From positions 1-10,818 of the forward strand of contig CAMALN010000038.1 of NCBI GenBank assembly GCA_945836565.1: 10,818 nt of DNA, written 5' to 3'. Of the stretch, positions 323 to 10,818 are shown in pieces. The stretch's first letter is position 1; each line of letters begins with the position of its first letter. A program made the position numbers and the translations under genes. The notes under the pieces were generated by a model that was given only the letters and a program-made list of their open reading frames with translations, made no database searches and had not been told where the DNA came from. Origin of the DNA: an uncultured Lachnospiraceae bacterium. Lineage in GTDB: Bacteria > Bacillota > Clostridia > Lachnospirales > Lachnospiraceae.

Positions 323-1249
323 CTACATTCTAGGCGGCTGTACTGCTCCAAGCAACATTCTAATCGCCTGATCAACATCTATCCTCTGTGCCTTTGCTCT
401 GGCACTGAGCTTAACTCTGTGTCCCAATACAGCCTTTGCACAATCCTGCACATCCTGGGCTGTCACATAGTCCCTGCCGTCCATAACAGCAGTCGCCTTC
501 GCCATACGAAGAAGTGCTATCGTACCTCTCGGACTTGCACCCATAGAGAATATATCCATGACTCTCGTCGCTTCAACGAGGCTTACTATATAGTCGTAAA
601 TCTCATCTCTGACAAACATATTATTTGTCTGCTCTCTTATCGCGATAAGCTCCTCCATAGTGATAATTTCCTTTACACTATCTATAGGCTTTGCGGCATT
701 ATTCTTCAATATCTGAACTGCATCCTCATGCGCCGGATAACCCATAGACAAACACACCATGAATCTGTCAAGTTGTGACTCCGGAAGCATCTGGGTACCG
801 GATGAGCCATAAGGATTCTCCGTAGCTATAACGACAAACGGCTCAGGAAGTGCCCTTGTAACTCCATCCACAGTAGCGTTGTGCTCCTCCATAACCTCCA
901 AAAGAGCTGACTGAGTCTTCGGAGAAGTTCTGTTTATCTCATCTGCAAGAAACAGATTACAGAATACCGCTCCCTCTCTGTATTCAAATTCCTTAGTAGC
1001 TGAATTATACATGGAAAATCCAAGTATATCACTTGGAAGTACATCCGGTGTAAACTGCACTCTCTTATGCGCCATGGACAGACTTCTCGCAAATGCAGTG
1101 GCAAGTGTGGTTTTTCCCACACCCGGTATATCCTCCATAAGAATATGTCCACCCGCTATTATCGCCGCAAGAACCTTATCAACCACCTGTTCCTTTCCTT
1201 TAATAACCTTGTTTACCTCCTCGGTAACCGCCCTTAATTTCTGCTGCAT
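323..1249 (-). CDS. MoxR-family AAA+ ATPase
   Basis: A 308-residue AAA+ ATPase of normal MoxR length. Walker A is IPGVGKTT (residues 41-48), Walker B is LFLADE (99-104), and these are followed by INRTSPKTQSALLEVMEE, the characteristic MoxR helix. Sensor 1 lies in IATENP (141-146), the arginine finger is in ESQLDRF (R162), and sensor 2 is ASPRG (238-242). A helical lid domain ends the protein. MoxR proteins use ATP to remodel or insert cofactors into partner proteins, often VWA-domain proteins encoded next door. Here the next gene is a DUF58-like membrane protein 17 bases downstream. The frame could begin at 1273, but GGAGG at 1255-1259 sits five bases before the ATG at 1247-1249 (MQQKLR), so I chose that start. 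Transcription probably begins at the extended -10 promoter at 1307-1334. The substrate is not evident from the sequence. Confidence 0.93.
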   Translation of the reverse strand: MQQKLRAVTEEVNKVIKGKEQVVDKVLAAIIAGGHILMEDIPGVGKTTLATAFARSLSMAHKRVQFTPDVLPSDILGFSMYNSATKEFEYREGAVFCNLFLADEINRTSPKTQSALLEVMEEHNATVDGVTRALPEPFVVIATENPYGSSGTQMLPESQLDRFMVCLSMGYPAHEDAVQILKNNAAKPIDSVKEIITMEELIAIREQTNNMFVRDEIYDYIVSLVEATRVMDIFSMGASPRGTIALLRMAKATAVMDGRDYVTAQDVQDCAKAVLGHRVKLSARAKAQRIDVDQAIRMLLGAVQPPRM

Positions 1250-1254
1250 TTTTT

Positions 1255-1259
1255 CCTCC
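1255..1259 (-). promoter_or_regulatory. Ribosome binding site setting the MoxR start
   Basis: GGAGG on the minus strand, five A residues before the ATG at 1247-1249. It lies inside the longer frame that begins at 1273, so it argues for the shorter start. Confidence 0.75.
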
Positions 1260-1306
1260 ATATATACCATCATACATCATATATTTTTAAGCATATTACT
1301 ACTTCC

Positions 1307-1389: not shown

Positions 1390-2559
1390 TTACTTAGTTA
1401 TTCCCAGCTTTACAGCTTCGTCTGCAACCGCCTTTGCTACAACCTTAGCTACTCTCTCATCAAATGCACCGGGGATAATGTACTCCTGAGCAAGCTCCTC
1501 ATCACTTACGATAGATGCAATAGCTCTTGCAGCAGCAAGCTTCATCTCCTCCGTTATACCGGTTGCTCTCGCATCAAGTGCGCCTCTGAATATTCCAGGG
1601 AATACAAGAACGTTATTTATCTGATTAGGATAATCAGAACGTCCGGTAGCAACTATATAAGCGCCTCCCTTTTTCGCCTCCTCCGGCATTATCTCCGGTG
1701 TAGGATTTGCCATGGCAAATACGATAGCCTTATCAGCCATTGTAGAAACCATCTCAGCAGAAACTATACCCGGCGCAGACACACCGATGAATACATCCTT
1801 GCCCTTCATAATCTCTGCAAGGCTTCCGCGCTGTCTATCCTTATTTGTAATCTCAGCCATCTCCTTCTGAGCCGGATTCATCCAATCCTCTCCCGGACAT
1901 AGGGCTCCATTTTTATCCACAAGAACTACATTTCCGATACCAAGCTGTAATAAAAGCTTACATATAGATATACCGGCTGAACCGGCACCGTTAATTACAA
2001 CATTTGCCTTGTCAAAATCCTTACCGGCAAGCTTAAGTGCATTGAGTAAGCCTGCTGATACCACGATTGCTGTTCCATGCTGGTCGTCATGGAATACCGG
2101 AATATCAAGCTCCTCCTTAAGTCTTCTCTCTATCTCAAAGCATCTTGGTGCAGAGATATCCTCAAGGTTAATTCCACCGAATACCGGTGCGATTCTCTTT
2201 ACAGTCTCAACTATCTCATCTACGTCCTTTGTGTCAAGACATATAGGAAATGCATCGACTCCGCCAAACTCCTTGAACAGAATTGACTTACCCTCCATAA
2301 CGGGAATAGCTGCCTCCGGTCCTATATCTCCAAGTCCTAAAACTGCTGTACCATCTGATACTACAGCTACTGTATTTGCCTTACAGGTATATCTGTATAC
2401 ATCATCCTTATTGTCTCTTATCCTTCTGCAAGGCTCTGCAACTCCCGGGGTATATGCTGTACTAAGGTCATCTCTGTCTTCAACCTTTACCTTAGACACA
2501 ACCTCAAGCTTTCCTCTGTTTTCCTCATGCATCTTTAAGCTTAATTCATTGTAATCCAT
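1390..2559 (-). CDS. Malic enzyme (malate dehydrogenase, oxaloacetate-decarboxylating), short bacterial type
   Basis: A cytoplasmic enzyme converting malate to pyruvate and CO2 with reduction of NAD(P). At 389 residues it has the length of the compact bacterial malic enzymes and lacks the phosphotransacetylase-like tail of long MaeB forms. Visible family motifs are STAYTPGVAEPC (residues 33-44, with the catalytic Tyr36), GLGDIGPEAAIPVMEGK (75-91, with the candidate catalytic Lys91), FGGINLEDISAPRCFEIE (127-144) and FHDDQHGTA (156-164, metal and substrate binding). The dinucleotide-fold GAGSAG is at 191-196, followed by FAMANPTPEI (281-290) and ATGRSDYPNQINN (304-316). The coenzyme preference cannot be read safely from the motifs. 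AGGAG at 2567-2571 lies seven bases before the ATG and overlaps the stop codon of the 85-aa gene, so translation may be coupled. A strong terminator follows. Its link to the upstream SMC genes is positional only. Confidence 0.96.
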   Translation of the reverse strand: MDYNELSLKMHEENRGKLEVVSKVKVEDRDDLSTAYTPGVAEPCRRIRDNKDDVYRYTCKANTVAVVSDGTAVLGLGDIGPEAAIPVMEGKSILFKEFGGVDAFPICLDTKDVDEIVETVKRIAPVFGGINLEDISAPRCFEIERRLKEELDIPVFHDDQHGTAIVVSAGLLNALKLAGKDFDKANVVINGAGSAGISICKLLLQLGIGNVVLVDKNGALCPGEDWMNPAQKEMAEITNKDRQRGSLAEIMKGKDVFIGVSAPGIVSAEMVSTMADKAIVFAMANPTPEIMPEEAKKGGAYIVATGRSDYPNQINNVLVFPGIFRGALDARATGITEEMKLAAARAIASIVSDEELAQEYIIPGAFDERVAKVVAKAVADEAVKLGITK

Positions 2560-2569
2560 CTTCCGTCTC

Positions 2570-2827
2570 CTAGTTCATTCTAACTTTTTCTATCTCTGCA
2601 TTACACTCAGCAATTCTTCCCTTTGCTTCAGTAATCTCTGTGACAATTGATGCAAGCTCTGCATCGTCACAGCCATTCTCATATCTCTTATATACTATCT
2701 CACCAATCTTCTGATAGTCATCCTTGATTAAAGTTTTCTCCTTGCTAATCTTGCTCTTGAGCTTTGTTACCTCCATAGCGTCATTAGCTTCACTCTTTAC
2801 TGTGTGCATAAAATCCTTGAATGCCAT
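2570..2827 (-). CDS. Small coiled-coil protein of unknown function (85 aa)
   Basis: The frame is open from 2866, but AGGAGG at 2835-2840 sits seven bases before the ATG at 2825-2827, giving a protein beginning MAFKDFMHTVKSEANDAME. The sequence is highly charged and almost entirely helical in character, with heptad-like stretches at about residues 15-48 (VTKLKSKISKEKTLIKDDYQ) and 55-83. The pattern of MAF-D, then KLKSKIS, then a long helix containing IGEIVYKRY resembles small Firmicute cytoplasmic proteins that often carry a C-terminal zinc ribbon; this one ends without any ribbon cysteines. It has no signal peptide or membrane segment. It lies 10 bases upstream of the malic enzyme gene and after a radical SAM gene, probably on the same message. 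No function can be assigned. Confidence 0.82.
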   Translation of the reverse strand: MAFKDFMHTVKSEANDAMEVTKLKSKISKEKTLIKDDYQKIGEIVYKRYENGCDDAELASIVTEITEAKGRIAECNAEIEKVRMN

Positions 2828-2834
2828 AATAAAT

Positions 2835-2840
2835 CCTCCT
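2835..2840 (-). promoter_or_regulatory. Ribosome binding site setting the start of the 85-aa protein
   Basis: A perfect AGGAGG seven bases before the ATG at 2825-2827. It rules against the upstream in-frame ATG at 2864-2866, which has no such site. Confidence 0.85.
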
Positions 2841-2869
2841 TGAAAATAAAAATTAATGAAATACAAAGG

Positions 2870-2911
2870 GTCCTAGCCAACTTTCCCGCTTCGCGGGCCC
2901 CTCTCTAGGAC
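2870..2911 (-). repeat. Compound inverted repeat overlapping the radical SAM stop codon
   Basis: Perfect 7-bp outer arms, GTCCTAG and CTAGGAC (2905-2911 and 2870-2876), enclose a second hairpin, CCCGC-GAA-GCGGG (around 2885-2897). The TAG stop of the radical SAM gene lies inside the outer arm. No clean T-run follows (CCTTTGTATTTC), so it is a poor intrinsic terminator. It could be a partial terminator, an RNA-processing or stability element, or the remnant of a small repeated element. It is the only intergenic structure in the run from the SMC genes to the malic enzyme. Confidence 0.6.
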
Positions 2912-3786
2912 ATATAATCAAACAAGCTTAGCTGCTCGCCCACCGTATTGTTCTTATATTCCCTCATATATCTGAAAAGCTCATCCTTATCATACACGAT
3001 TCCGTGCTCCTCACAGGTATTATATACCAGTTTGTTCAGCTTATCAACCTGAGGGCTTAACACCTCATATTGGTCTCCGAATTCCTTTATATATCTCTCC
3101 TTAAGCCCCGGAAACAGCTTATCCAGCTGACTGTAATAGTATTGTCTGTTTCCATCCCTTAATGTCATACCTGCACCAAAATACATAATTCCGTATACGC
3201 CGGCTTTTACACAATAGTCAAGCAGCCCTCGCATATTTTCCTCTGTATCATTGATATAAGGCAGGATAGGCGATATCCACACAATCGTCGGTATGCCCCT
3301 TTCCTTTAGCTTCATAAGCACCTCAAAGCGTTCCCTCGTGGTGCATACATTTGGCTCGAGCTTCCTGCAAAGCTCCTCGTCATAGGTTGTAAGAGTAATA
3401 GCCACTACACATTTTGTCTTCTTATTTATCTCCTCTAACAAATCAAGGTCCCTTAATATAAGCTTAGACTTTGTCTGTATAACGACGCCAAACTCAAATC
3501 TCGCAATCTGTGTAAGGCACTGTCTCATAAGCTTAAGCTCTGCCTCAAGAGGCATATAAGGGTCCATCATAGAGCCCGTGCCTATCATACCCTTACGACG
3601 CTTCTTCTTCAGAGTATTCTCAAGCAGATTCACTGCTCCGGCTTTGACCTCTATATCCTCAAAGTCATGGTCCATCTTGTAGCAGGTGCTTCGAGAGTCA
3701 CAGTATATGCAGCCGTGAGTACATCCTCTATACAAATTCATTCCATTTTGCGGCGACAATATCGCCTTCACTTCTTTATAATGCAT
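2905..3786 (-). CDS. SplB-like radical SAM protein with a C-terminal clamp-like motif
   Basis: A 293-residue radical SAM protein. The [4Fe-4S] ligands C22, C26 and C29 sit in GCTHGCIYCDSR, with the C-x3-C-x2-C spacing of the superfamily. The pattern of the spore photoproduct lyase-like group (COG1533) follows: GTGSMMDPYMPLE (69-81), IQTKSKLILRDLDLL (103-117), TLTTYDEELCRKLEP (131-145) and ISPILPYINDTEEN (171-184). It is unlikely to be the true spore lyase; most members of this group have no proven reaction. The extreme C-terminus contains QLSLF (285-289), which matches the pentapeptide that binds the bacterial DNA sliding clamp. The start is the ATG at 3784-3786, preceded by GAGGTG, only nine bases after the stop of the SMC ATPase. 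This suggests co-transcription with the SMC operon. A DNA-linked repair or modification role is an inference from the motif and neighbourhood. Confidence 0.9.
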   Translation of the reverse strand: MHYKEVKAILSPQNGMNLYRGCTHGCIYCDSRSTCYKMDHDFEDIEVKAGAVNLLENTLKKKRRKGMIGTGSMMDPYMPLEAELKLMRQCLTQIARFEFGVVIQTKSKLILRDLDLLEEINKKTKCVVAITLTTYDEELCRKLEPNVCTTRERFEVLMKLKERGIPTIVWISPILPYINDTEENMRGLLDYCVKAGVYGIMYFGAGMTLRDGNRQYYYSQLDKLFPGLKERYIKEFGDQYEVLSPQVDKLNKLVYNTCEEHGIVYDKDELFRYMREYKNNTVGEQLSLFDYMS

Positions 3787-3795
3787 CCTTCACCT

Positions 3796-6700
3796 CTATA
3801 TGAAATCAAAGCTTTCCTGCTCATACTCAAGCTCCTGATACTCCAGCTCATCCTGTTCAACCGTACTGGTGTAATCCGTAACAACCGTGAGCTGCTTTCC
3901 CTGAGACATCTGCTGTCCAAGGATATAATTCACATCGAATCTGCCTGTGATGGCAGGAGTTGCACCACGTGCCGGTACGATGAGCTGAACCTTATTGGCC
4001 TTAAGCATGGCAAATATCGGTTCCCAGATATACACGTCCTTAGCCGCTCCAAACGGGTTATCTATAAATATTGTCTTGGTTCTCATATCATCATTTGAAG
4101 CCTGATACATGCCGGAAATGTAATTGATAATCGAAACCAGGAACTGAATATATATACCCTGCGACTGTCCGGTGCTTCCCACCGCTTCCTCATACTTAAG
4201 GTAACGACTCTGCTCCTTTATCCTCTCTCTCTTGTACAGAGAAAGCTTTATGGCATTCATATCCGTCACTATGACTCCAAATAATTTCTTGAGTGTAAGA
4301 CTTGAACGTATAAACTTGATTCTGTCCTGATCCTTCTCATAGCCGTCTGCCTGTGCCACAAGCTTGTCTATGTAATCCGACATACGCTGCTTTAAGAACT
4401 CGTCCTTTACATATGGAATAGCAAGTCCAACCATCTGTATAGGCTCATCGTCAACTATTATTCTTGAAAGCTTAGGAAGCTTATCTAACTCAGTTCTTAC
4501 ATCTAGACATCTCTGCAGACACTGCTCCTCAAAGTTTGCCTTGATAGTCTCCATATCGGTGAGACTCTTCTCGATTCTATCCCTCTCAAGACTTATATAC
4601 TCTGCCGTCGTATTGAGATTCTCTAAGAGTTCCCTCGCCATATTATAATCGTCAGGAATCACTACGTCATCTCTTATAGTACGTGCTAGCTCATACACCT
4701 CCATCACATCAAGCGCCGTTGCCGTATTTCCCTTGAACTTAAGCAATTCATTCTTAGCACGCTCGATACCCTTTATGCTCTTGTCAAACTTAAGCAAGGC
4801 AGTCTCAAATATATTTCTAAGCTGGTCCTTACTCTCGTTTATGATGACTGCATGCTCCAAGCTTATATCATAGGTTACTACAATTCTCTTAACATCCTTG
4901 TAGAGCTCTATCATATAACCCTGCTGTCTCAAATACTCTCTGCACGCCTTCTCGGAGGCTTTATACTCATCCTCCAATCTCTTAAGCAGCTGCTCACCGC
5001 TTTCAAGATTCGATACAATCTCTGATAGGCTTGCATCCTGCTCCTCATATGTGCCAAACTGCTTTTCAATGCTTGAGATAGCATATTCTATACTACCCTC
5101 AAGCTTGCTTATCTTCTGTGAGACCTCTTTTATCTCTGCCTCACAAGCCTTTATCTGTTCCTTGACATTTTCCATATTCACCCTTGAGGCATGAAGTATA
5201 TCCTCATCTGATGCAAACAGAAGATTATGCTTCTCCATATCCTCAAGCTTTTTGATGCTTGTGCCGCGTCTTTCTATACTCTTTAAGGTTCTGTCCATAG
5301 AGGTCTTTATTGTATCCATTATCTCTCTCTTATCCTCTATGGTTCTGGCATCAGCACTTCCTACTTCTACCATAGCCTTAAAACGTGCTTTTAGCTCATC
5401 GTCACTTGATGCTATAACCTCATACTCCTTATCCACGAGATAGTACGCCTTGTAGTTCTCATCCCACTCTCTTACAAGCTCTGCCTCCTTCTTCTGAAGA
5501 AGCTCAAGTCTCGCCTCAGCGGAAGCTACATCTATACCCTCATCCGCAGACGAATTTGTAAGCTCATCTACATTTTCAGACAGACGTCTTATATCCTCTG
5601 CAGCAGCCTTTGATACCGCCTCCTGCTTCGATACAAGCTCTTCTATGGAAAGTACGGTAACAAGCTTGTTATTATCCTCAAGTCTGATGTCATAAGCATC
5701 CTTCAATTCATTTATCTTATCTGTTAATGCTTCAAGAGTCTTCTCTGTATCTGATATCGACTTTTTCAAAGCATCTATATCATCCCTAAGCTTCTGTTCG
5801 GAATCCTTCGCATCACTAAGCTTTTTCTGTGCTTCCAATATTCCGCTCTCAAGAAGTCTTATGATAAATGTCTGGTCCTCCTTAAGTGCATCCAGCATAT
5901 CCTCCCAGACCTCTTTTTTCATAAGCATTTCCTTTACGGAATCATTATTAGCCTTAGTGAGTGCAGCTATAGTCTCGCTGTCTAAGATATATTCAGGCTT
6001 TGCCCCTACAGTAAATACATGCTCTCCGAGATACATGGCCTTTTCATCTACAGACTTCATATCATAGACCACAACCATCTGCGTTCCGGTATTGACATCA
6101 CAGATATTCGGGTCTTCCTTAATAGAGGAATAATCATCGACAACAACACCGTAAACTATATCCGGATTGGTTGTAAGCACCTTCTTCTTCGCTTCCTCCG
6201 GAAGTGCCATAATATAATCCATGCCGGACATTGCAAGCTTACCGTGTCTTGTCTCTATATAATCCAGAAGCTTATTTACCGCCTCTGAATTCTCGATGAT
6301 TCGCCCCTCAGCAAGCTGCCTGCTTCTCTTTTCAGCACGGGCAATGTTTTGCTCTAATACATATATATCCAAAATTGTTGAGGTAATCTTCTGTGCGATA
6401 GTTTCCTTTAATGCATCTATATCCTCAGTCTTATATATATTTCTGAAATTAGATAGTCTTCCTTCTGCTTCCTGATATTTGTAATTATCAGCCTCCAGCC
6501 CGGCTATATCTTCCTCCAGGCGCTCCAGCTGTTTGCCCTTAAGCATAAGCTCAAGCTTTAGGTCATTTAAGCTTATCTGGGCCGACCTCTTTTCTTCCTC
6601 GGAATTATTTATCTTTTCCTTTAGGTCAGAAAGCGCACCCTCGTTTTCCTCAAGCTGCTCATCATAGCTCGCGAATTTTATGTCATTCATAGACATTCTA

Positions 6701-8205
6701 ATCTTGGACAGACGCTCGCTTAATGCTACTATGTCCTCATCCGCTGCCTCCTTACGACTCCTGGCTACAGCAAGAGCTGTCTTCGCCTCAGACAAAAGCT
6801 TATCCTGAAACTCACGCTTAAGCTTATCCTCTGTAAGCTCCTCAGAAAGCTTTGCAATCTGCGAACGTATGTCAGCAAGCGCAATATCCGTTCTCATCTT
6901 GATATTGTAGGCATAAGCATATATAGCCTCCTCATCAAGCTTTGAATCTGCCATTATATTTTTGAGTAATTCCTCGTACTCATGGTACTTGGCCCTATCC
7001 GTCATATAATCAAGATACTCGTTGATGCTTTCCTTAAGATTGTATTCCTCCATCAAAGAATCAAGTCTGCCTCTGGCTTCCTTAAGCTTATCATTTAATG
7101 CTTTATCACGCTCGGCAAGCTCCTTTATCTGATTCTTATCACGTGCAACCTTTAAGCATTCTATCTTCCTTCGCTGGCCGCCAAGCTGAAGCTGCTTCTC
7201 ATCCCTTGCACGATTTAGCTCCTCCATTTGCTCCTCGTCATTCTTCGCAAACTCTGCTCCTGTTACGCAGACATTTGCCAATATGTCTGTAAGCTCGCTT
7301 TTTTCTTTATACAGATCCATAAATGAAGCAACCCTATCAGCAAGCACATTTATAAGCTCAATCTGATGATCATAGCTCGATATATCCTTTTTCTTCTTGG
7401 CAAGTACAGTAAGCTGCTCCTTTATATCCATAAGCATCTTTGCCATCGAAGAGCTTCCATCATCCTCTCTGGCAGTCTTAACCATATATGCCTTTTCTAT
7501 AATCTCCTCTATAAGAAGATCCTCAACTACCTTTCTGGTAGTCTTATAATTATTCTCAAAATACGTTCTGACATGTCCCTCAGTCTTGTTGATACCTCGT
7601 ATTATCTCCCACTGGCTCTCGTGAAGACCAAAATTACTGATATATCTCTGATATTCTCCCTTTCGCTCAAATACACGAACACGAAGGCGCATGTCACTTC
7701 TCTCTAAGTCCTTCAGATAATTGCGAAGTCCCTGAAAGGTGACCCTCGTGCCGTCCTTAACAAGCGGCAGATTGATTATGTCATTCTTATTGTAGTCCCT
7801 GTAGAAAATACAATAATTAAAATATTCTATAGAAGCCACATCTGCATTTGCATTATCAGTCTCTGACTCCGAAGCCTCCTTTGCCTTTCTGGCACAGAAG
7901 CCCGTAGTCATATATCTGTAGCCCTCGCTGTCCTCACCCGGCTCAAGCTTCCACTCCACAAGCGAGTGTATGGTAGTATTCCCATTTCCGGTTCTAAACA
8001 GCTTCTCGATAGGTTGCTTCTCATCCAATGTACAGTTCGGTATCATATTCTGCATAAGAAGCAGCATAAGAACACTCTTACCGCCACCGTTTGCCAAGTC
8101 GTAGAGTGTGTTCTTGCCATGCATTCTCATGGTGAAATCATCATAATACTGCGTTCCGAAATTATATTTTACGTTATTCACTCTTATTCTGTTGATACTA
8201 GGCAT
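3796..8205 (-). CDS. SMC/MukB/JetC-like coiled-coil ATPase
   Basis: A 1469-residue protein with SMC layout. An N-terminal ATPase half carries the P-loop LANGGGKS (residues 37-44). Long charged coiled coils cover roughly 260-640 and 760-1240, separated by a globular hinge-like region at about 642-750 (NPDIVYGVVVDDYSS and after). The C-terminal ATPase half has an ABC-type signature region, GSTGQSQG (1343-1350), and a Walker B strand, TIFIDNPFG (1378-1386), with a D-loop-like AAKD next. In this class ATP binding joins two heads, and the dimer with its kleisin and small subunit extrudes DNA loops. Two oddities are that the first Walker A glycine is Leu and that the residue after Walker B Asp1382 is Asn rather than Glu. 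The tail is acidic with a doubled ELEY. A GTG frame begins at 8214, but GGAGG at 8214-8218 lies eight bases before the ATG at 8203-8205, giving an ATGCCTAG overlap with the previous gene. Confidence 0.9.
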   Translation of the reverse strand: MPSINRIRVNNVKYNFGTQYYDDFTMRMHGKNTLYDLANGGGKSVLMLLLMQNMIPNCTLDEKQPIEKLFRTGNGNTTIHSLVEWKLEPGEDSEGYRYMTTGFCARKAKEASESETDNANADVASIEYFNYCIFYRDYNKNDIINLPLVKDGTRVTFQGLRNYLKDLERSDMRLRVRVFERKGEYQRYISNFGLHESQWEIIRGINKTEGHVRTYFENNYKTTRKVVEDLLIEEIIEKAYMVKTAREDDGSSSMAKMLMDIKEQLTVLAKKKKDISSYDHQIELINVLADRVASFMDLYKEKSELTDILANVCVTGAEFAKNDEEQMEELNRARDEKQLQLGGQRRKIECLKVARDKNQIKELAERDKALNDKLKEARGRLDSLMEEYNLKESINEYLDYMTDRAKYHEYEELLKNIMADSKLDEEAIYAYAYNIKMRTDIALADIRSQIAKLSEELTEDKLKREFQDKLLSEAKTALAVARSRKEAADEDIVALSERLSKIRMSMNDIKFASYDEQLEENEGALSDLKEKINNSEEEKRSAQISLNDLKLELMLKGKQLERLEEDIAGLEADNYKYQEAEGRLSNFRNIYKTEDIDALKETIAQKITSTILDIYVLEQNIARAEKRSRQLAEGRIIENSEAVNKLLDYIETRHGKLAMSGMDYIMALPEEAKKKVLTTNPDIVYGVVVDDYSSIKEDPNICDVNTGTQMVVVYDMKSVDEKAMYLGEHVFTVGAKPEYILDSETIAALTKANNDSVKEMLMKKEVWEDMLDALKEDQTFIIRLLESGILEAQKKLSDAKDSEQKLRDDIDALKKSISDTEKTLEALTDKINELKDAYDIRLEDNNKLVTVLSIEELVSKQEAVSKAAAEDIRRLSENVDELTNSSADEGIDVASAEARLELLQKKEAELVREWDENYKAYYLVDKEYEVIASSDDELKARFKAMVEVGSADARTIEDKREIMDTIKTSMDRTLKSIERRGTSIKKLEDMEKHNLLFASDEDILHASRVNMENVKEQIKACEAEIKEVSQKISKLEGSIEYAISSIEKQFGTYEEQDASLSEIVSNLESGEQLLKRLEDEYKASEKACREYLRQQGYMIELYKDVKRIVVTYDISLEHAVIINESKDQLRNIFETALLKFDKSIKGIERAKNELLKFKGNTATALDVMEVYELARTIRDDVVIPDDYNMARELLENLNTTAEYISLERDRIEKSLTDMETIKANFEEQCLQRCLDVRTELDKLPKLSRIIVDDEPIQMVGLAIPYVKDEFLKQRMSDYIDKLVAQADGYEKDQDRIKFIRSSLTLKKLFGVIVTDMNAIKLSLYKRERIKEQSRYLKYEEAVGSTGQSQGIYIQFLVSIINYISGMYQASNDDMRTKTIFIDNPFGAAKDVYIWEPIFAMLKANKVQLIVPARGATPAITGRFDVNYILGQQMSQGKQLTVVTDYTSTVEQDELEYQELEYEQESFDFI

Positions 8206-8926
8206 CCTCTCCACCTCCCAGTACCTTGTATATCTTGCCTCGGTATTCCTCGAAATAATTCTCTACTACCGCCTTGAAACGGTTAGTAGGATAATATCTG
8301 CCCTCAACCTCGACAAAAAGCTTCTGCGATATAAGGAAGTTTAGAGCAAGCTTTATATAGCCGGTGCGTGATGCCCTTGATGCCCTGTTTTTGTCCTTGT
8401 CCTCTGATGTAACCGCAGGCAGCTCATCCCACAAAAGCGCGAGTGCCTTGAAGCTTTCCTCACTTATCTCATCCATTGCATATACTGAGATATCATTTGT
8501 GATAACCGACAGATAATCACTTACCTGCTTCATGATATCCTCAAGTCGCACATACTCCTTTACCTGATATGATGCAGAATCCTGATAGAACGAGAGCAAG
8601 GTGTTATACATTATAAAGTACACCATATAAAGCTCCTTGTTTATTCTAAGGCCGAGTATTCGTTTCATATCATCATTTGTGTAACCGAATATACGGTTTC
8701 CCTCGCCTGCTGTGATATATATGCTCTCCTCATATTCATACACACTCAGGTTAAGCTTCTTCAATAATCTGGTTACTATGTCATAAACTGCAGAGTTCGA
8801 ATAGTACTCCTCATACATCTCTCTGGTATCAGGATTGGAACGTGAGATGTCCTGTCCGGTAATAAGTGCGGCATATATATCCAAGGCCTTATCCAAGCTT
8901 CTGTCAATGCTCATATCCTCCATCAT
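8198..8926 (-). CDS. MukE/JetB-like small subunit of the SMC complex
   Basis: A 242-residue soluble protein encoded between the kleisin-like and SMC-like genes, the position of MukE, MksE and JetB. It is predominantly helical, with two winged-helix-like portions: the first around residues 35-95 (VYDIVTRLLKKLNLSVYEYEESIYIT), and the second at the C-terminus (YIKLALNFLISQKLFVEVEGRYYPTNRFKAVVENYF). That strand-turn-strand wing after a helix is typical of these subunits. It could belong to the DUF6063-type JetB group, but I cannot confirm this without a profile search. Such subunits bridge the kleisin and DNA. AGGAGG (8932-8937) precedes two adjacent ATGs; the first overlaps the upstream TGA as ATGA, and the second has the more usual spacing. 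The stop overlaps the start of the ATPase gene. The function is inferred mainly from size, fold pattern and gene order. Confidence 0.8.
   Translation of the reverse strand: MMEDMSIDRSLDKALDIYAALITGQDISRSNPDTREMYEEYYSNSAVYDIVTRLLKKLNLSVYEYEESIYITAGEGNRIFGYTNDDMKRILGLRINKELYMVYFIMYNTLLSFYQDSASYQVKEYVRLEDIMKQVSDYLSVITNDISVYAMDEISEESFKALALLWDELPAVTSEDKDKNRASRASRTGYIKLALNFLISQKLFVEVEGRYYPTNRFKAVVENYFEEYRGKIYKVLGGGEDA
8214..8218 (-). promoter_or_regulatory. Ribosome binding site setting the SMC ATPase start
   Basis: GGAGG eight bases before the ATG at 8203-8205, inside the end of the small-subunit gene. It favours the ATG over the in-frame GTG at 8212-8214, which is embedded in the site itself. 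Confidence 0.7.
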
Positions 8927-10557
8927 CCGTTCCTCCTTTCTTTCTCTGTAGTTCCCTTTGTAAATCTCATATTTGTTACCATAAATCTGTCGTCCACAGT
9001 CTCAGTCTCCTCTTCAAGCTGTCCCAAGGCCTCAAGCTCACTATAGGTAGACACATTTTTGTACCTTCTTGCCATCCTTGCATCTGTGATATCAAGTACA
9101 AGCTGCTCATCTATATCAAACTCTATTGTAAATGCCAGATTCTTAAATCGTTCCTTTGCATCCTTGCTCAAATACTCGATAACCATACCCTCAAGCATAG
9201 TGTCCTGTTTTACGAGCATATCTGACATATGGTATTCCTTCTTACCTGCCAAGTGTACAAGGAATGCATAATAATCTCTGTTTCCGTATATTTCTTTACC
9301 GAATTTAACCTCGAGAATCGTGTTGAATTCCTTGAGTGTAAGACTGTTCCACTTGTCTATCTGGTCGAGAAGCTCATAGAACATCCTTGCGAAATTCCTG
9401 CCTATCTCCTGCTCAAGCAACTCATCCTCATATATGAAATCAAGATCAAGCTTTGCCTTTTCCGCCTTCTCACCCTTATCCTTATCCTCCGCCTTAAGCG
9501 TCAGGATATTATCTATCGACTTCATACTAAATGTCTTATCTATCCTGGGCGCAAAAAGAGGCATGAGCACTGCTCCCATAAGAGCAGGCTTATCCTTATC
9601 CATAATATTTGCAAGAGCCTGTCTGAAATCAAATACCGGTCTTAGCTTTCTAAGCTTTGCCCTGCTTATAATCTTGTCTGATAGCTGAGTGAGCTCCATA
9701 GTCTCTGCTATAAGCCTGCTGTGATTATATATTGTCCTCTTAAGCTCGGTCTCAAGTGCGCTTATCTCCTCCATCGCCTTAGAATTCGGAGTCGCCTTCT
9801 CTATCGTCTTATCCACCAATGCCTTGTTCTTCGCGAAAAGCTTCTGCTCCTCACTAAACCACTTGGCAGTGTTGGACATATATTCCTCATACGCCTTACT
9901 TCCTTCGAATACATCTATGCTAAGAAGCTTAAGCACCTGATCCTTCTTCATAACCAGCTCTCTCAGCTGAGAATTAATTCTCTTTACTACATCTATACCA
10001 CCCTTGAAGTTATTCGATGTAATCATCTTCTCCAGTAGAAGCTGGGATATATTTATCTTACTCTCGTCCTTTATCTCCTTAGTGTCGAGATAGAATTCGA
10101 TACCCTCAGGTGTAATTGTATATAGCACCTGTCCGTTCTCTATCCTGCTGTCTATAAGTCTGACTCTACTTACCTTTTTTTTCCTGTTCTCGGGATCATA
10201 GAAGGAAAACTCGAATGCACGTCCGTCATTTTTCAGCTTATCAAATATGTAAAGTGCAAGCTGCTTCTCGTCCTCCGCCGATTCCTTAAGCTCGAAATCC
10301 CTATGCAAAAGCTCGAGCACGAAGTCCTCATATTCATCATAGGTTATGTCACGCTCGTGGAAATTATTTTCGTTAATAAAAAAACGCAGGGATGCCATAG
10401 TAATATATCCCATGTCAAGCGAAGCATACCTTCCCTCTTTATATTGAGAAAACGTGGTCTCGCTCAGCACAAAAAAAGGATAATACTTTTTCAGGTTCTG
10501 CATCCTCGCGCTATGCTCTGCAATTATATCGTTTATCATCACGTGCTTAAGTGCCAT
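8923..10557 (-). CDS. Kleisin-like (MukF/JetA-like) subunit of the SMC complex
   Basis: A 544-residue soluble protein, first of the three SMC-complex genes. The N-terminal third looks like paired winged-helix domains: YITMASLRFFINENNFHERD and on (50-90), then VLYTITPEGIEFYLDT (145-159). LLLEKMITSNNFKGGIDVVKRINSQL (173-198) follows and resembles the MukF-type helical region after its winged helix. The middle (about 200-310) is helical and coiled-coil-like. A charged linker (about 356-370, AEDKDKGEKAEKAK) leads to a C-terminal domain that should contact the ATPase head. In MukBEF and Wadjet complexes this subunit links the two heads and binds the MukE/JetB subunit. It may match the DUF5716/JetA family, which needs a profile search. 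A TTG frame opens at 10581, but GAGGG (10562-10566) precedes the ATG at 10555-10557. The stop overlaps the next start as ATGA. Assignment rests on fold pattern, size and operon order. Confidence 0.8.
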   Translation of the reverse strand: MALKHVMINDIIAEHSARMQNLKKYYPFFVLSETTFSQYKEGRYASLDMGYITMASLRFFINENNFHERDITYDEYEDFVLELLHRDFELKESAEDEKQLALYIFDKLKNDGRAFEFSFYDPENRKKKVSRVRLIDSRIENGQVLYTITPEGIEFYLDTKEIKDESKINISQLLLEKMITSNNFKGGIDVVKRINSQLRELVMKKDQVLKLLSIDVFEGSKAYEEYMSNTAKWFSEEQKLFAKNKALVDKTIEKATPNSKAMEEISALETELKRTIYNHSRLIAETMELTQLSDKIISRAKLRKLRPVFDFRQALANIMDKDKPALMGAVLMPLFAPRIDKTFSMKSIDNILTLKAEDKDKGEKAEKAKLDLDFIYEDELLEQEIGRNFARMFYELLDQIDKWNSLTLKEFNTILEVKFGKEIYGNRDYYAFLVHLAGKKEYHMSDMLVKQDTMLEGMVIEYLSKDAKERFKNLAFTIEFDIDEQLVLDITDARMARRYKNVSTYSELEALGQLEEETETVDDRFMVTNMRFTKGTTEKERRNG

Positions 10558-10579: not shown

Positions 10580-10627
10580 AAAAAAATATCTTAACTATGC
10601 CGCTTTCTAAATCGCATAATTAAGATA
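10580..10627 (-). terminator. Intrinsic terminator between the membrane-protein gene and the SMC operon
   Basis: The arms at 10614-10627 and 10587-10600 form a 14-bp stem on the minus strand (TATCTTAATTATGC with GCATAGTTAAGATA, one G-U pair) around a 13-base loop. Seven T residues (10580-10586) follow directly. It lies about 50 bases after the stop of the upstream gene and 22 bases before the kleisin-like start. It probably ends the upstream transcript, but it lies in the leader region of the SMC operon, so it could also act as an attenuator. Confidence 0.87.
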
Positions 10628-10675: not shown

Positions 10676-10818
10676 TCATCGTTGATTATTCTCCATATCT
10701 TCTGCCTTTTTGTAATCCACATACTGACCTGCCGTTATTGCCAGTATAAAGAATATAATAAAAGATAATCCCAGGAACAGAAGATATTTCTTAGAGGATT
10801 TTGTATTTGCTCTAACAC
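10676..10818 (-). CDS. C-terminal part of a small membrane protein (cut by window edge)
   Basis: This frame is open from the window edge to a TGA at 10676-10678 and supplies 46 residues. It contains a lysine-rich stretch (NTKSSKKY), then one strongly hydrophobic helix (LLFLGLSFIIFFILAITAG, residues 12-30), then a short charged tail (QYVDYKKAEDMENNQR). The positive residues before the helix suggest its N-terminal side is in the cytoplasm and the tail outside. The protein may be a single-pass membrane protein or the end of a larger one. No family is recognised. The terminator at 10580-10627 probably closes its transcript. Confidence 0.6.
   Translation of the reverse strand, partial: VRANTKSSKKYLLFLGLSFIIFFILAITAGQYVDYKKAEDMENNQR

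What the first reader, a model, noticed from the sequence alone, without database searches (positions are those of the whole stretch)
3796..10557. MukBEF/Wadjet-like SMC complex with no JetD nuclease beside it
Three translationally overlapped genes encode a kleisin-like, a MukE-like and a large SMC-like ATPase subunit in the order of JetA-JetB-JetC. In Wadjet anti-plasmid systems a fourth gene, jetD, encodes the TOPRIM-type nuclease. Here the position after the ATPase is taken by a radical SAM gene, and the upstream side is closed by a terminator and a small membrane protein. The flanking genes look like ordinary housekeeping genes. The set may therefore be a chromosomal condensin-like complex that does not cleave DNA, or a defence system with a different or distant effector. 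The gene order is seen; the complex assignment is from family knowledge; the function is inference.
Basis: partly seen in the sequence, partly recalled or inferred. Interest (0 to 1): 0.75.

Follow-up and report, generated by a model that had tools for sequence, protein, structure and literature searches.

The report
Nuclease-free Wadjet turned chromosome-maintenance machine
A DNA-handling machine that other bacteria use to destroy plasmids has, in a branch of gut bacteria (Lachnospiraceae), lost its DNA-cutting part and is now inherited like an ordinary housekeeping gene set, which suggests that a defence weapon became a chromosome-care machine.

Summary
jetA-jetB-jetC (10557-8923, 8926-8198, 8214-3796, minus strand) encode a MukF-like kleisin, a MukE/JetB-like KITE and an SMC ATPase, closest to PADLOC's type III Wadjet models. 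One correction: in type III loci jetD lies UPSTREAM of jetA, and the window is a whole contig ending 261 bp upstream of jetA, so only relatives could settle its absence. They do. A jetD profile finds nothing in 128 loci of this subfamily; it finds jetD in 20 of 20 ordinary type III loci (19 trained it) and in 17 of 20 independent outside loci. The subfamily is nested among jetD-bearing lineages and its sister keeps jetD: jetD was probably lost. The complex then behaves like a core gene. Its jetB is in 35 of 37 genomes of the window's genus (18 of 18 good ones). Its tree follows RpoB (23 of 32 splits; ordinary type III 4 of 17). Its flanks are conserved (13 of 39 follow dnaX-ybaB-recR). ScpB coexists. 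Best reading: a second, non-cutting chromosomal SMC complex domesticated from a type III Wadjet, parallel to P. aeruginosa MksBEF. The inheritance is shown; the cellular function is inferred.

The parts
8923..10557 (-). jetA-like kleisin (MukF-like), 544 aa; ATG at 10557
   Evidence: PADLOC JetA3 PDLC00560 712 bits; model's top four PDB hits from MukBEF/MukEF entries; start by conserved N-terminus
8198..8926 (-). jetB-like KITE subunit (MukE/JetB-like, two winged-helix-like units), 242 aa
   Evidence: PADLOC JetB3 338 bits, Pfam DUF6063 157 bits; model hits from JetABC, MukEF and Nse1 entries
3796..8214 (-). jetC-like SMC ATPase, 1472 aa; Walker A NGGGKS at residues 42-47, ABC-signature-like STGQSQG at 1347-1353, Walker B-like D1385-N1386
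   Evidence: PADLOC JetC3 PDLC00581 1782 bits over the whole length; motifs invariant in the 36 aligned subfamily JetC
2905..3786 (-). radical SAM protein, 293 aa, 9 bp after jetC, probably the same transcript (inferred); related to the PA0069 and Rv2578c radical SAM families but below their cut-offs
   Evidence: Pfam Radical_SAM 51 bits; NCBIfam 158 and 147 bits, cut-offs 360 and 430; next gene after jetC in 38 of 92 distinct loci
10580..10627 (-). hairpin with 14-bp stem, 13-nt loop and T7 tail, probably the terminator of the upstream gene
   Evidence: fold z -3.7; stem found by script; not conserved in relatives (6 of 38)
10676..10818 (-). C-terminal end (47 codons with stop) of a small membrane-protein-like ORF cut by the contig end
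   Evidence: read directly from the sequence; no family search was run on it
1390..2559 (-). malic enzyme, conserved neighbour of the window lineage
   Evidence: Pfam malic/Malic_M; family c10 in 6 of 39 subfamily loci, window included
323..1273 (-). MoxR-type AAA+ ATPase, conserved neighbour of the window lineage
   Evidence: Pfam AAA_3 188 bits; family c15 in 5 of 39 loci, window included

Best explanation
This is a second, chromosome-directed SMC complex that descends from a type III Wadjet system and has lost the JetD nuclease. Inferred mechanism: two JetC ATPases, closed by the JetA kleisin and JetB KITE pair, load on DNA and translocate or extrude loops with ATP, as is proposed for MukBEF and Wadjet JetABC. 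With no JetD attached, a completed or stalled loop is not cut. The complex therefore works as an auxiliary condensin beside Smc-ScpAB, in nucleoid compaction, segregation or replication/repair-coupled DNA handling. Shown here: subunit families and (weakly) folds, ATPase motifs, lack of jetD across the subfamily's loci, probable loss from a jetD-bearing ancestor, purifying selection, inheritance that follows RpoB, near-core jetB within two genera, conserved neighbours, coexistence with ScpB. Inferred: complex assembly, motor activity, chromosomal substrate and cellular role.
For: (1) jetD: a JetD3 profile in six frames finds 0 of 128 subfamily loci and 20 of 20 ordinary type III loci (19 of those 20 supplied the profile). 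Independent controls: 17 of 20 loci from outside the family, the sister L229 among them, and 5 of 5 genomes with ordinary type III that did not supply it. Genome-wide it gives E<1e-100 in 24 of 24 genomes with an ordinary type III jetB (two of them, G151 and G174, also carry the subfamily) and only E 1.8e-5 to 9.4e-4 in 5 of the 37 genomes with the subfamily alone. (2) Probable loss: 42 subfamily rows (SH-aLRT 99) are nested among jetD+ lineages with jetD+ L229 as sister. (3) Vertical inheritance: 23 of 32 splits shared with RpoB in 35 taxa (shuffles: mean 0.25, max 3), strong splits 16 of 20 shared, 2 in conflict; ordinary type III of the same family (20 taxa) 4 of 17 shared, strong 1 of 11 shared, 10 of 11 in conflict; 12 taxa linked to dnaX-recR 9 of 9 shared. 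Subsampled to 20 taxa: median 0.65 (range 0.35-0.82) against 0.24. (4) Near-core jetB: 35 of 37 genomes of the genus, 18 of 18 high-quality; second genus 50 of 61, 26 of 31 high-quality. (5) Flanks: 35 of 39 loci hold a flanking family shared by at least 3 loci, against 4 of 20; subsampled to 20, median 15, range 8-19; dnaX-ybaB-recR upstream in 13 of 39. (6) ScpB in 38 of 39. (7) dN/dS at most 0.085 for the Jet genes where it could be computed. (8) Fold hits.
Against: Family-wide presence is patchy: 39 of 299 genomes, about one per genus, so many losses or some transfer are needed. A simple distance correlation with RpoB did not separate the groups (JetA 0.64 vs 0.52, JetB 0.33 vs 0.65, JetC 0.46 vs 0.54). 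Two strong subfamily splits conflict with RpoB, and the window itself is not in that test because its RpoB is incomplete. The lowest subsample (0.35) comes near the ordinary value (0.24). 11 of 37 subfamily-only genomes hold some JetD_C protein on another contig, so help in trans is not excluded there. The basal member L098 is cut at jetB, so its jetD state is unknown. Most genomes are incomplete assemblies. In the second genus jetD was not searched genome-wide. JetC has Asn where SMC ATPases have the catalytic Glu of Walker B (recalled), although all 19 aligned ordinary type III JetC have it too. No functional data exist.
Confidence: 0.7

Rival explanations
1. It is still a defence system: JetABC senses small circular DNA and either recruits a different or distant effector (for example a TPR-AAA protein, a type I/II JetD in trans, or a host nuclease) or silences the plasmid by compaction without cutting, as is proposed for Smc5/6 and viral circles.
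For: The subunits are closest to PADLOC type III Wadjet models. A TPR-plus-AAA-like protein family lies within two genes after jetC in 26 of the 36 subfamily loci of the first set where a gene after jetC is visible. 11 of 37 subfamily-only genomes carry a JetD_C protein elsewhere.
Against: The TPR-AAA gene is found in only 3 of the 80 loci of the second set, most of them nearer to the window, and in none of the window lineage's loci held here. 26 of 37 subfamily-only genomes have no JetD_C hit, nor has the single-contig genome G919. Vertical inheritance and near-core presence are unusual for defence genes; the ordinary type III systems of the same family behave oppositely.
Confidence: 0.2
2. 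jetD is present but missed: it lies beyond the contig end in this incomplete genome, or has diverged beyond recognition.
For: The window ends 261 bp upstream of jetA, where jetD would be; the genome is 71% complete.
Against: 100 of 110 distinct relatives show at least 1.2 kb upstream of jetA and none has jetD. 33 of 37 genomes of the genus have no JetD_C hit, and the four hits lie on contigs other than that of the subfamily jetB. The gene next upstream is recR in 10 of the 100 loci and unlabelled in 90. The profile finds jetD in 17 of 20 independent outside loci.
Confidence: 0.04
3. The complex is a decaying remnant of a Wadjet system without function.
For: The nuclease is gone; L077 has jetA split into two ORFs.
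Against: dN/dS at most 0.085 where computed; 18 of 18 high-quality genomes of the genus keep jetB; ATPase motifs are invariant in 36 of 36 aligned JetC.
Confidence: 0.02

Closest known systems
Wadjet type III (JetABCD)
   Same: Homologous kleisin, KITE and SMC subunits in the same order; best PADLOC matches are JetA3, JetB3, JetC3.
   Different: No jetD, where ordinary type III has it directly upstream of jetA; vertically inherited and near-core in two genera. The ABC-signature region STGQSQG differs from NSGGEG of 15 of 19 ordinary JetC, but the jetD+ sister L229 shares it.
MksBEF of Pseudomonas aeruginosa
   Same: A MukBEF-like SMC complex without the nuclease subunit, in a species that also has Smc-ScpAB; [quoted passage not shown] table passage of PMC4255302).
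   Different: By recall, that complex derives from another (type I-like) branch; the present one belongs to type III and to Lachnospiraceae, so it would be an independent loss. The relation of the two was not tested on a tree here.
MukBEF of enterobacteria
   Same: Kleisin, KITE and SMC architecture; predicted folds hit MukF and MukE entries.
   Different: MukBEF apparently replaced Smc-ScpAB (PMC10586767, passage), whereas ScpB coexists here in 38 of 39 genomes. Sequences are far apart: searches with the JetA and JetB alignments found no MukF or MukE in the PDB.
MksBEFG of Corynebacterium glutamicum
   Same: MukBEF-like complex coexisting with Smc-ScpAB.
   Different: Retains the MksG/JetD nuclease and acts on plasmids, not the chromosome (PMC7083940 and PMC10123090, passages read).

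Membership tests
Wadjet type III defence system | JetA, JetB and JetC of type III | tested here: met
   PADLOC JetA3/B3/C3 at 712, 338 and 1782 bits
Wadjet type III defence system | JetD (TOPRIM nuclease) in the operon | tested here: not met
   0 of 128 subfamily loci against 20 of 20 ordinary loci, 19 of which trained the profile, and 17 of 20 independent outside loci; 3 of the 19 training proteins checked and all match PADLOC JetD3. In the window itself the jetD position lies beyond the contig end.
Wadjet type III defence system | Restriction of plasmid transformation | not testable with these tools
   needs a bench test
MukBEF/MksBEF-type SMC complex (nuclease-free) | Kleisin subunit of MukF type | tested here: met
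   Foldseek top four hits from MukBEF/MukEF entries, E 7e-5 to 3e-3, probability 1.00, but TM 0.21-0.22; JetA3 profile
MukBEF/MksBEF-type SMC complex (nuclease-free) | Tandem winged-helix KITE subunit of MukE type | tested here: met
   top 13 hits from JetABC, MukEF/MukBEF and Nse1/MAGE entries, TM 0.34-0.45
MukBEF/MksBEF-type SMC complex (nuclease-free) | SMC ATPase with Walker A, signature and Walker B around long coiled coils | tested here: inconclusive
   Walker A and an S-x-G-Q signature are invariant; the residue after the Walker B Asp is Asn, not Glu; coiled-coil matches to myosin and SMC chains (best 60 of 92 shown)
MukBEF/MksBEF-type SMC complex (nuclease-free) | Acts on chromosome organization | not testable with these tools
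   only indirect evidence: vertical inheritance and near-core presence
MukBEF sensu stricto | Replaces Smc-ScpAB in the genome | tested here: not met
   ScpB found in 38 of 39 subfamily genomes, own genome included; Smc and ScpA were not searched
Lamassu (LmuB) | SMC-like LmuB with LmuA effector | tested here: not met
   only 20 bits of partial match to LmuB and no LmuA match among the four window proteins scanned

The most novel reading that the evidence does not exclude
A type III Wadjet was domesticated in Lachnospiraceae into a lineage-core, non-cutting condensin coupled to replication and repair genes, and it gained new partners: a large TPR - acidic linker - AAA-like protein beside it in many lineages, and a radical SAM protein in the window lineage. 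That would be a new SMC system with its own loader or regulator, independent of both MukBEF and P. aeruginosa MksBEF. (Probability lowered from 0.3 to 0.25 on recheck, because only 3 of the 80 second-set loci show the TPR-AAA gene.)
Probability: 0.25. Interest if true: 0.78.

Novelty: new variant of a known kind. Interest (0 to 1): 0.62.

Why it matters
Whether MukBEF-like condensins arose from plasmid-defence machines is an open question; a review calls this tempting to speculate and gives P. aeruginosa MksBEF as a likely case of JetD loss (PMC10586767, passages). Here the step can be followed inside one bacterial order: a jetD-bearing sister, a jetD-free clade, and ordinary, horizontally moving type III systems in the same family as a control. 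It also warns annotators: 39 of the 63 JetB3 places found in 299 genomes of the family belong to the group without jetD and could be counted as defence by profile matches alone. Carriers deposited as strains, not as metagenome bins, exist (Eubacterium ruminantium ATCC 17233; Eubacterium sp. MSJ-21, whose contig has the same length as one of a genome in the window's genus), so the function can be tested.

Tried and rejected
Radical SAM as replacement effector: rejected as a general account. It is next to jetC in 38 of 92 distinct loci; those of them that are on the tree fall in one clade of nine rows; and it lies at the other end from the jetD position.

RecR (a TOPRIM protein) as a replacement for JetD: noted because recR sits exactly where jetD would be, but the one RecR scanned has the full domain set (HhH, Cys4 zinc finger, Toprim, C-terminal) within dnaX-ybaB-recR. 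Read as a housekeeping neighbour.

Hairpin before jetA as a conserved attenuator: rejected; 6 of 38 rSAM-linked loci and 13 of 72 others have any such hairpin.

Replacement of Smc-ScpAB: rejected (ScpB only).

Plasmid linkage: the JetC search in PLSDB gave 1 record with a 24% match over 20%. The control with an ordinary type III JetC gave 3 records covering 9-14%, so the test does not discriminate.

Patchiness control in an ordinary type III genus: the genus held only 2 genomes (1 of 2 with jetD), uninformative. So near-core presence has no matched control.

Mantel correlation with RpoB: does not discriminate, perhaps because the ordinary set holds distinct subgroups; the split comparison does.

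Sequence search in PDB with the JetA, JetB and JetC alignments: only coiled-coil or chance matches in what was shown.

Rows dropped: L075 and L077 from the tree (under half of the columns filled); G000 and G129 from the RpoB comparison (short RpoB); 17 duplicate loci from the distinct set. Only 6 of the 80 scan loci were put on the tree. In one search the label 'd-' of L111 is an ORF-picker error (the six-frame search finds its jetD) and that of L098 stands for unknown; the fewest changes of jetD state printed there, 5, includes both. Of 24 ordinary type III places, 20 neighbourhoods were fetched (G038, G136, G157 and G281 not). dN/dS: pairs with saturated dS gave no value, two gene comparisons failed with an error, and several computed dS exceed 1.

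Papers: PMC10586767, PMC10123090, PMC7083940, PMC12287153, PMC10197239, PMC4255302, PMC12153180 and PMC10512200 were seen as passages found by term, none in full. PMC3179180 (recalled as the MksBEF discovery paper) is not held. Searches whose listings and passages showed no description of a jetD-free type III clade, in an open-access library only.
Full report
What is there. The window is the whole contig 38 of a 71%-complete genome assembly (1.64 Mb in 238 contigs). Named relatives point to Lachnospiraceae: a same-genus contig of 116,240 bases has the same length as one deposited as Lachnospiraceae bacterium RUG12564. On the minus strand lie, in order of transcription, the end of a small membrane-protein-like ORF, a hairpin with a T-run, jetA, jetB, jetC, a radical SAM gene, a 98-aa ORF, malic enzyme, a MoxR ATPase and a cut ORF whose longer relative matches DUF58. 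The three Jet genes overlap. PADLOC matches are JetA3, JetB3 and JetC3 at 712, 338 and 1782 bits; the neighbouring radical SAM protein matches no PADLOC model.

Subunit folds. Sequence searches of the PDB show only coiled coils or chance matches. AlphaFold2 models from subfamily alignments were therefore compared. The JetB model (mean pLDDT 80) has two winged-helix-like units. Its 13 best PDB hits come from JetABC, MukEF/MukBEF and Nse1/MAGE entries (E 4e-4 to 4e-2, TM 0.34-0.45). The JetA model (mean pLDDT 78, pTM 0.41) has an N-terminal region of helices and strands, long helices, a low-confidence linker around 336-367 and a C-terminal domain. Its best four hits come from MukBEF/MukEF entries (E 7e-5 to 3e-3, TM only about 0.2). 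JetC has Walker A NGGGKS, an S-x-G-Q signature (STGQSQG) and a Walker B-like IFIDNPFG; the key residues are invariant in 36 relatives. The residue after the Walker B Asp is Asn in these 36 and in all 19 aligned ordinary type III JetC. 15 of those 19 read NSGGEG at the signature.

jetD is missing as a rule, not by accident of the contig. A JetB3 profile found 63 places in 61 of 299 genomes of the family, in two clear groups: 39 at E below 1e-50 (the window's subfamily) and 24 at 6.5e-26 or weaker (ordinary type III). Neighbourhoods of 38 of the first group (plus the window) and 20 of the 24 in the second were fetched. In the ordinary group jetD sits upstream of jetA: 19 of 20 by ORF calling (in L104 other genes lie between), 20 of 20 by six-frame profile search. 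Nineteen of these twenty built the profile, so the independent controls matter: 17 of 20 loci outside the family and the five ordinary genomes that did not supply it. PADLOC confirms JetD3 on the three proteins tested. In the window's subfamily the same search finds none in 128 loci: the window, those 38, 80 loci from a scan of GTDB genomes with the JetA alignment (the best 80 of 207 confirmed), and 9 more from the genus. Of 110 distinct loci with jetA, 100 show at least 1.2 kb upstream. Genome-wide, JetD_C (PF09983) is found in 23 of 24 genomes with ordinary type III and in 11 of 37 genomes with only the subfamily, there always on another contig. In the genus it is in 4 of 37 genomes, on contigs other than that of the subfamily jetB. 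The single-contig genome G919 carries jetA, jetC and the radical SAM gene and no JetD_C hit.

It was probably lost. A tree of 83 concatenated JetA/B/C rows puts 42 subfamily rows in one clade (SH-aLRT 99) inside jetD-bearing lineages. Its sister L229, from another family of the same order, keeps jetD with the ENKD and GDxD motifs, although a nearly invariant Glu is Val. A second jetD-free pair (L230, L231) and a single locus (L243) lie elsewhere, which suggests further losses; their whole genomes were not searched. Caveats: a quick search with a simple model; the more basal L098 is cut at jetB, so its jetD state is unknown.

It is inherited like a core gene. Trees of the subfamily and RpoB (35 taxa; the window is not among them, its RpoB being incomplete) share 23 of 32 splits (shuffled labels: mean 0.25, maximum 3). 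Of strong splits, 16 of 20 are shared and 2 conflict. The ordinary type III systems of the same family (20 taxa) share 4 of 17, and 10 of their 11 strong splits conflict. The contrast mostly survives subsampling to equal size: median 0.65 (range 0.35-0.82 in 24 draws of 20) against 0.24. A cruder distance correlation did not separate the groups, which is told here against the claim. Within the window's genus 35 of 37 genomes, and 18 of 18 high-quality ones, have the subfamily jetB. In the genus of G160 it is 50 of 61 and 26 of 31. A matched control genus for ordinary type III was too small. Across the family it is in 39 of 299, so losses must have been frequent.

Its neighbourhood is conserved. 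35 of 39 subfamily loci hold a flanking gene family seen in at least three loci, against 4 of 20 ordinary loci; subsampled to 20 the subfamily median is 15, range 8-19. In 13 of 39 loci the upstream genes are dnaX-ybaB-recR, with recR next to jetA in 10. For 12 of these the RpoB and Jet trees agree on 9 of 9 splits. In the window lineage jetABC-radical SAM-malic enzyme-MoxR, with or without the 98-aa ORF, recurs across genera, and the radical SAM gene lies 9 to 160 bp after jetC in 38 of 92 distinct loci. Selection is purifying, with dN/dS of 0.085 or less for the Jet genes wherever it could be computed among ten pairs; many dS values are high or saturated. ScpB is present in 38 of 39 subfamily genomes, so this is an additional complex.

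Interpretation. A defence system that moves horizontally would be expected to look like the ordinary type III group. The jetD-free group looks like a chromosomal gene set. JetD is the cutting subunit and JetABC the sensor, for which loop extrusion is proposed (PMC10586767, passages), so a JetABC without JetD should handle DNA without cutting it. The closest precedent is MksBEF of P. [quoted passage not shown] I therefore read the window's set as an independently domesticated, type III-derived auxiliary condensin. That it loads on the chromosome, extrudes loops and aids segregation or repair is inference. Non-cutting plasmid silencing, or an effector in trans, remains possible.

A candidate new partner. 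Within two genes after jetC, 26 of the 36 first-set loci with a gene visible after jetC carry a 646-1320 aa protein with N-terminal TPR repeats, a long linker (acidic in the one read through) and, in some, a weak C-terminal AAA-like match. All 26 link into one group by BLAST, with 63 columns conserved at 75% or more. Single linkage through TPRs and acidic stretches can overstate this. Against it: the profile finds only 3 further loci, in the 80 of the second set, and none in the window lineage's loci held here.

Noticed in passing
L063:4074-6839, L061:13274-16363, L073:13139-15586 and 23 similar genes after jetC: A large TPR - linker - AAA-like protein lies within two genes after jetC in 26 of the 36 first-set jetD-free loci with a gene visible there, but in only 3 of the 80 second-set loci; a possible functional partner, with no PADLOC match for the one tested (L063).
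   Followed up: partly
window JetC residues 1385-1386 and relatives: The Walker B position of the catalytic Glu (recalled) is Asn (IDNPF) in all 36 subfamily and all 19 ordinary type III JetC aligned, and Ser in L230, so type III JetC may hydrolyse ATP differently from other SMC ATPases.
   Followed up: partly
window JetC residues 1346-1354: The signature region reads GSTGQSQGI in the subfamily and its jetD+ sister L229 but NSGGEGF in 15 of 19 ordinary type III JetC; it marks a deep branch of JetC, not the loss of jetD.
   Followed up: yes
upstream of jetA in L061-L063, L071, L073, L077, L079, L081, L084, L087: recR, itself a TOPRIM protein, lies exactly where the TOPRIM nuclease jetD lies in ordinary type III loci; probably a coincidence of location, the one RecR scanned having the full domain set.
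   Followed up: partly
L230 and L231 (family f2, same order), L243 (same class): Further JetABC sets without jetD beside them, on separate branches of the tree: possible independent losses of the nuclease; whole genomes not searched.
   Followed up: partly
L205 and L207: Contigs deposited as Bacteroidales/Bacteroides MAGs carry the Lachnospiraceae-type locus and have the same lengths (72,045 and 115,782) as contigs of genomes placed in the window's family and genus, so the deposited names are probably wrong.
   Followed up: no
window 2570-2866: A 98-aa ORF with no Pfam or NCBIfam match at E 0.001 is conserved between the radical SAM gene and malic enzyme in several genera.
   Followed up: no
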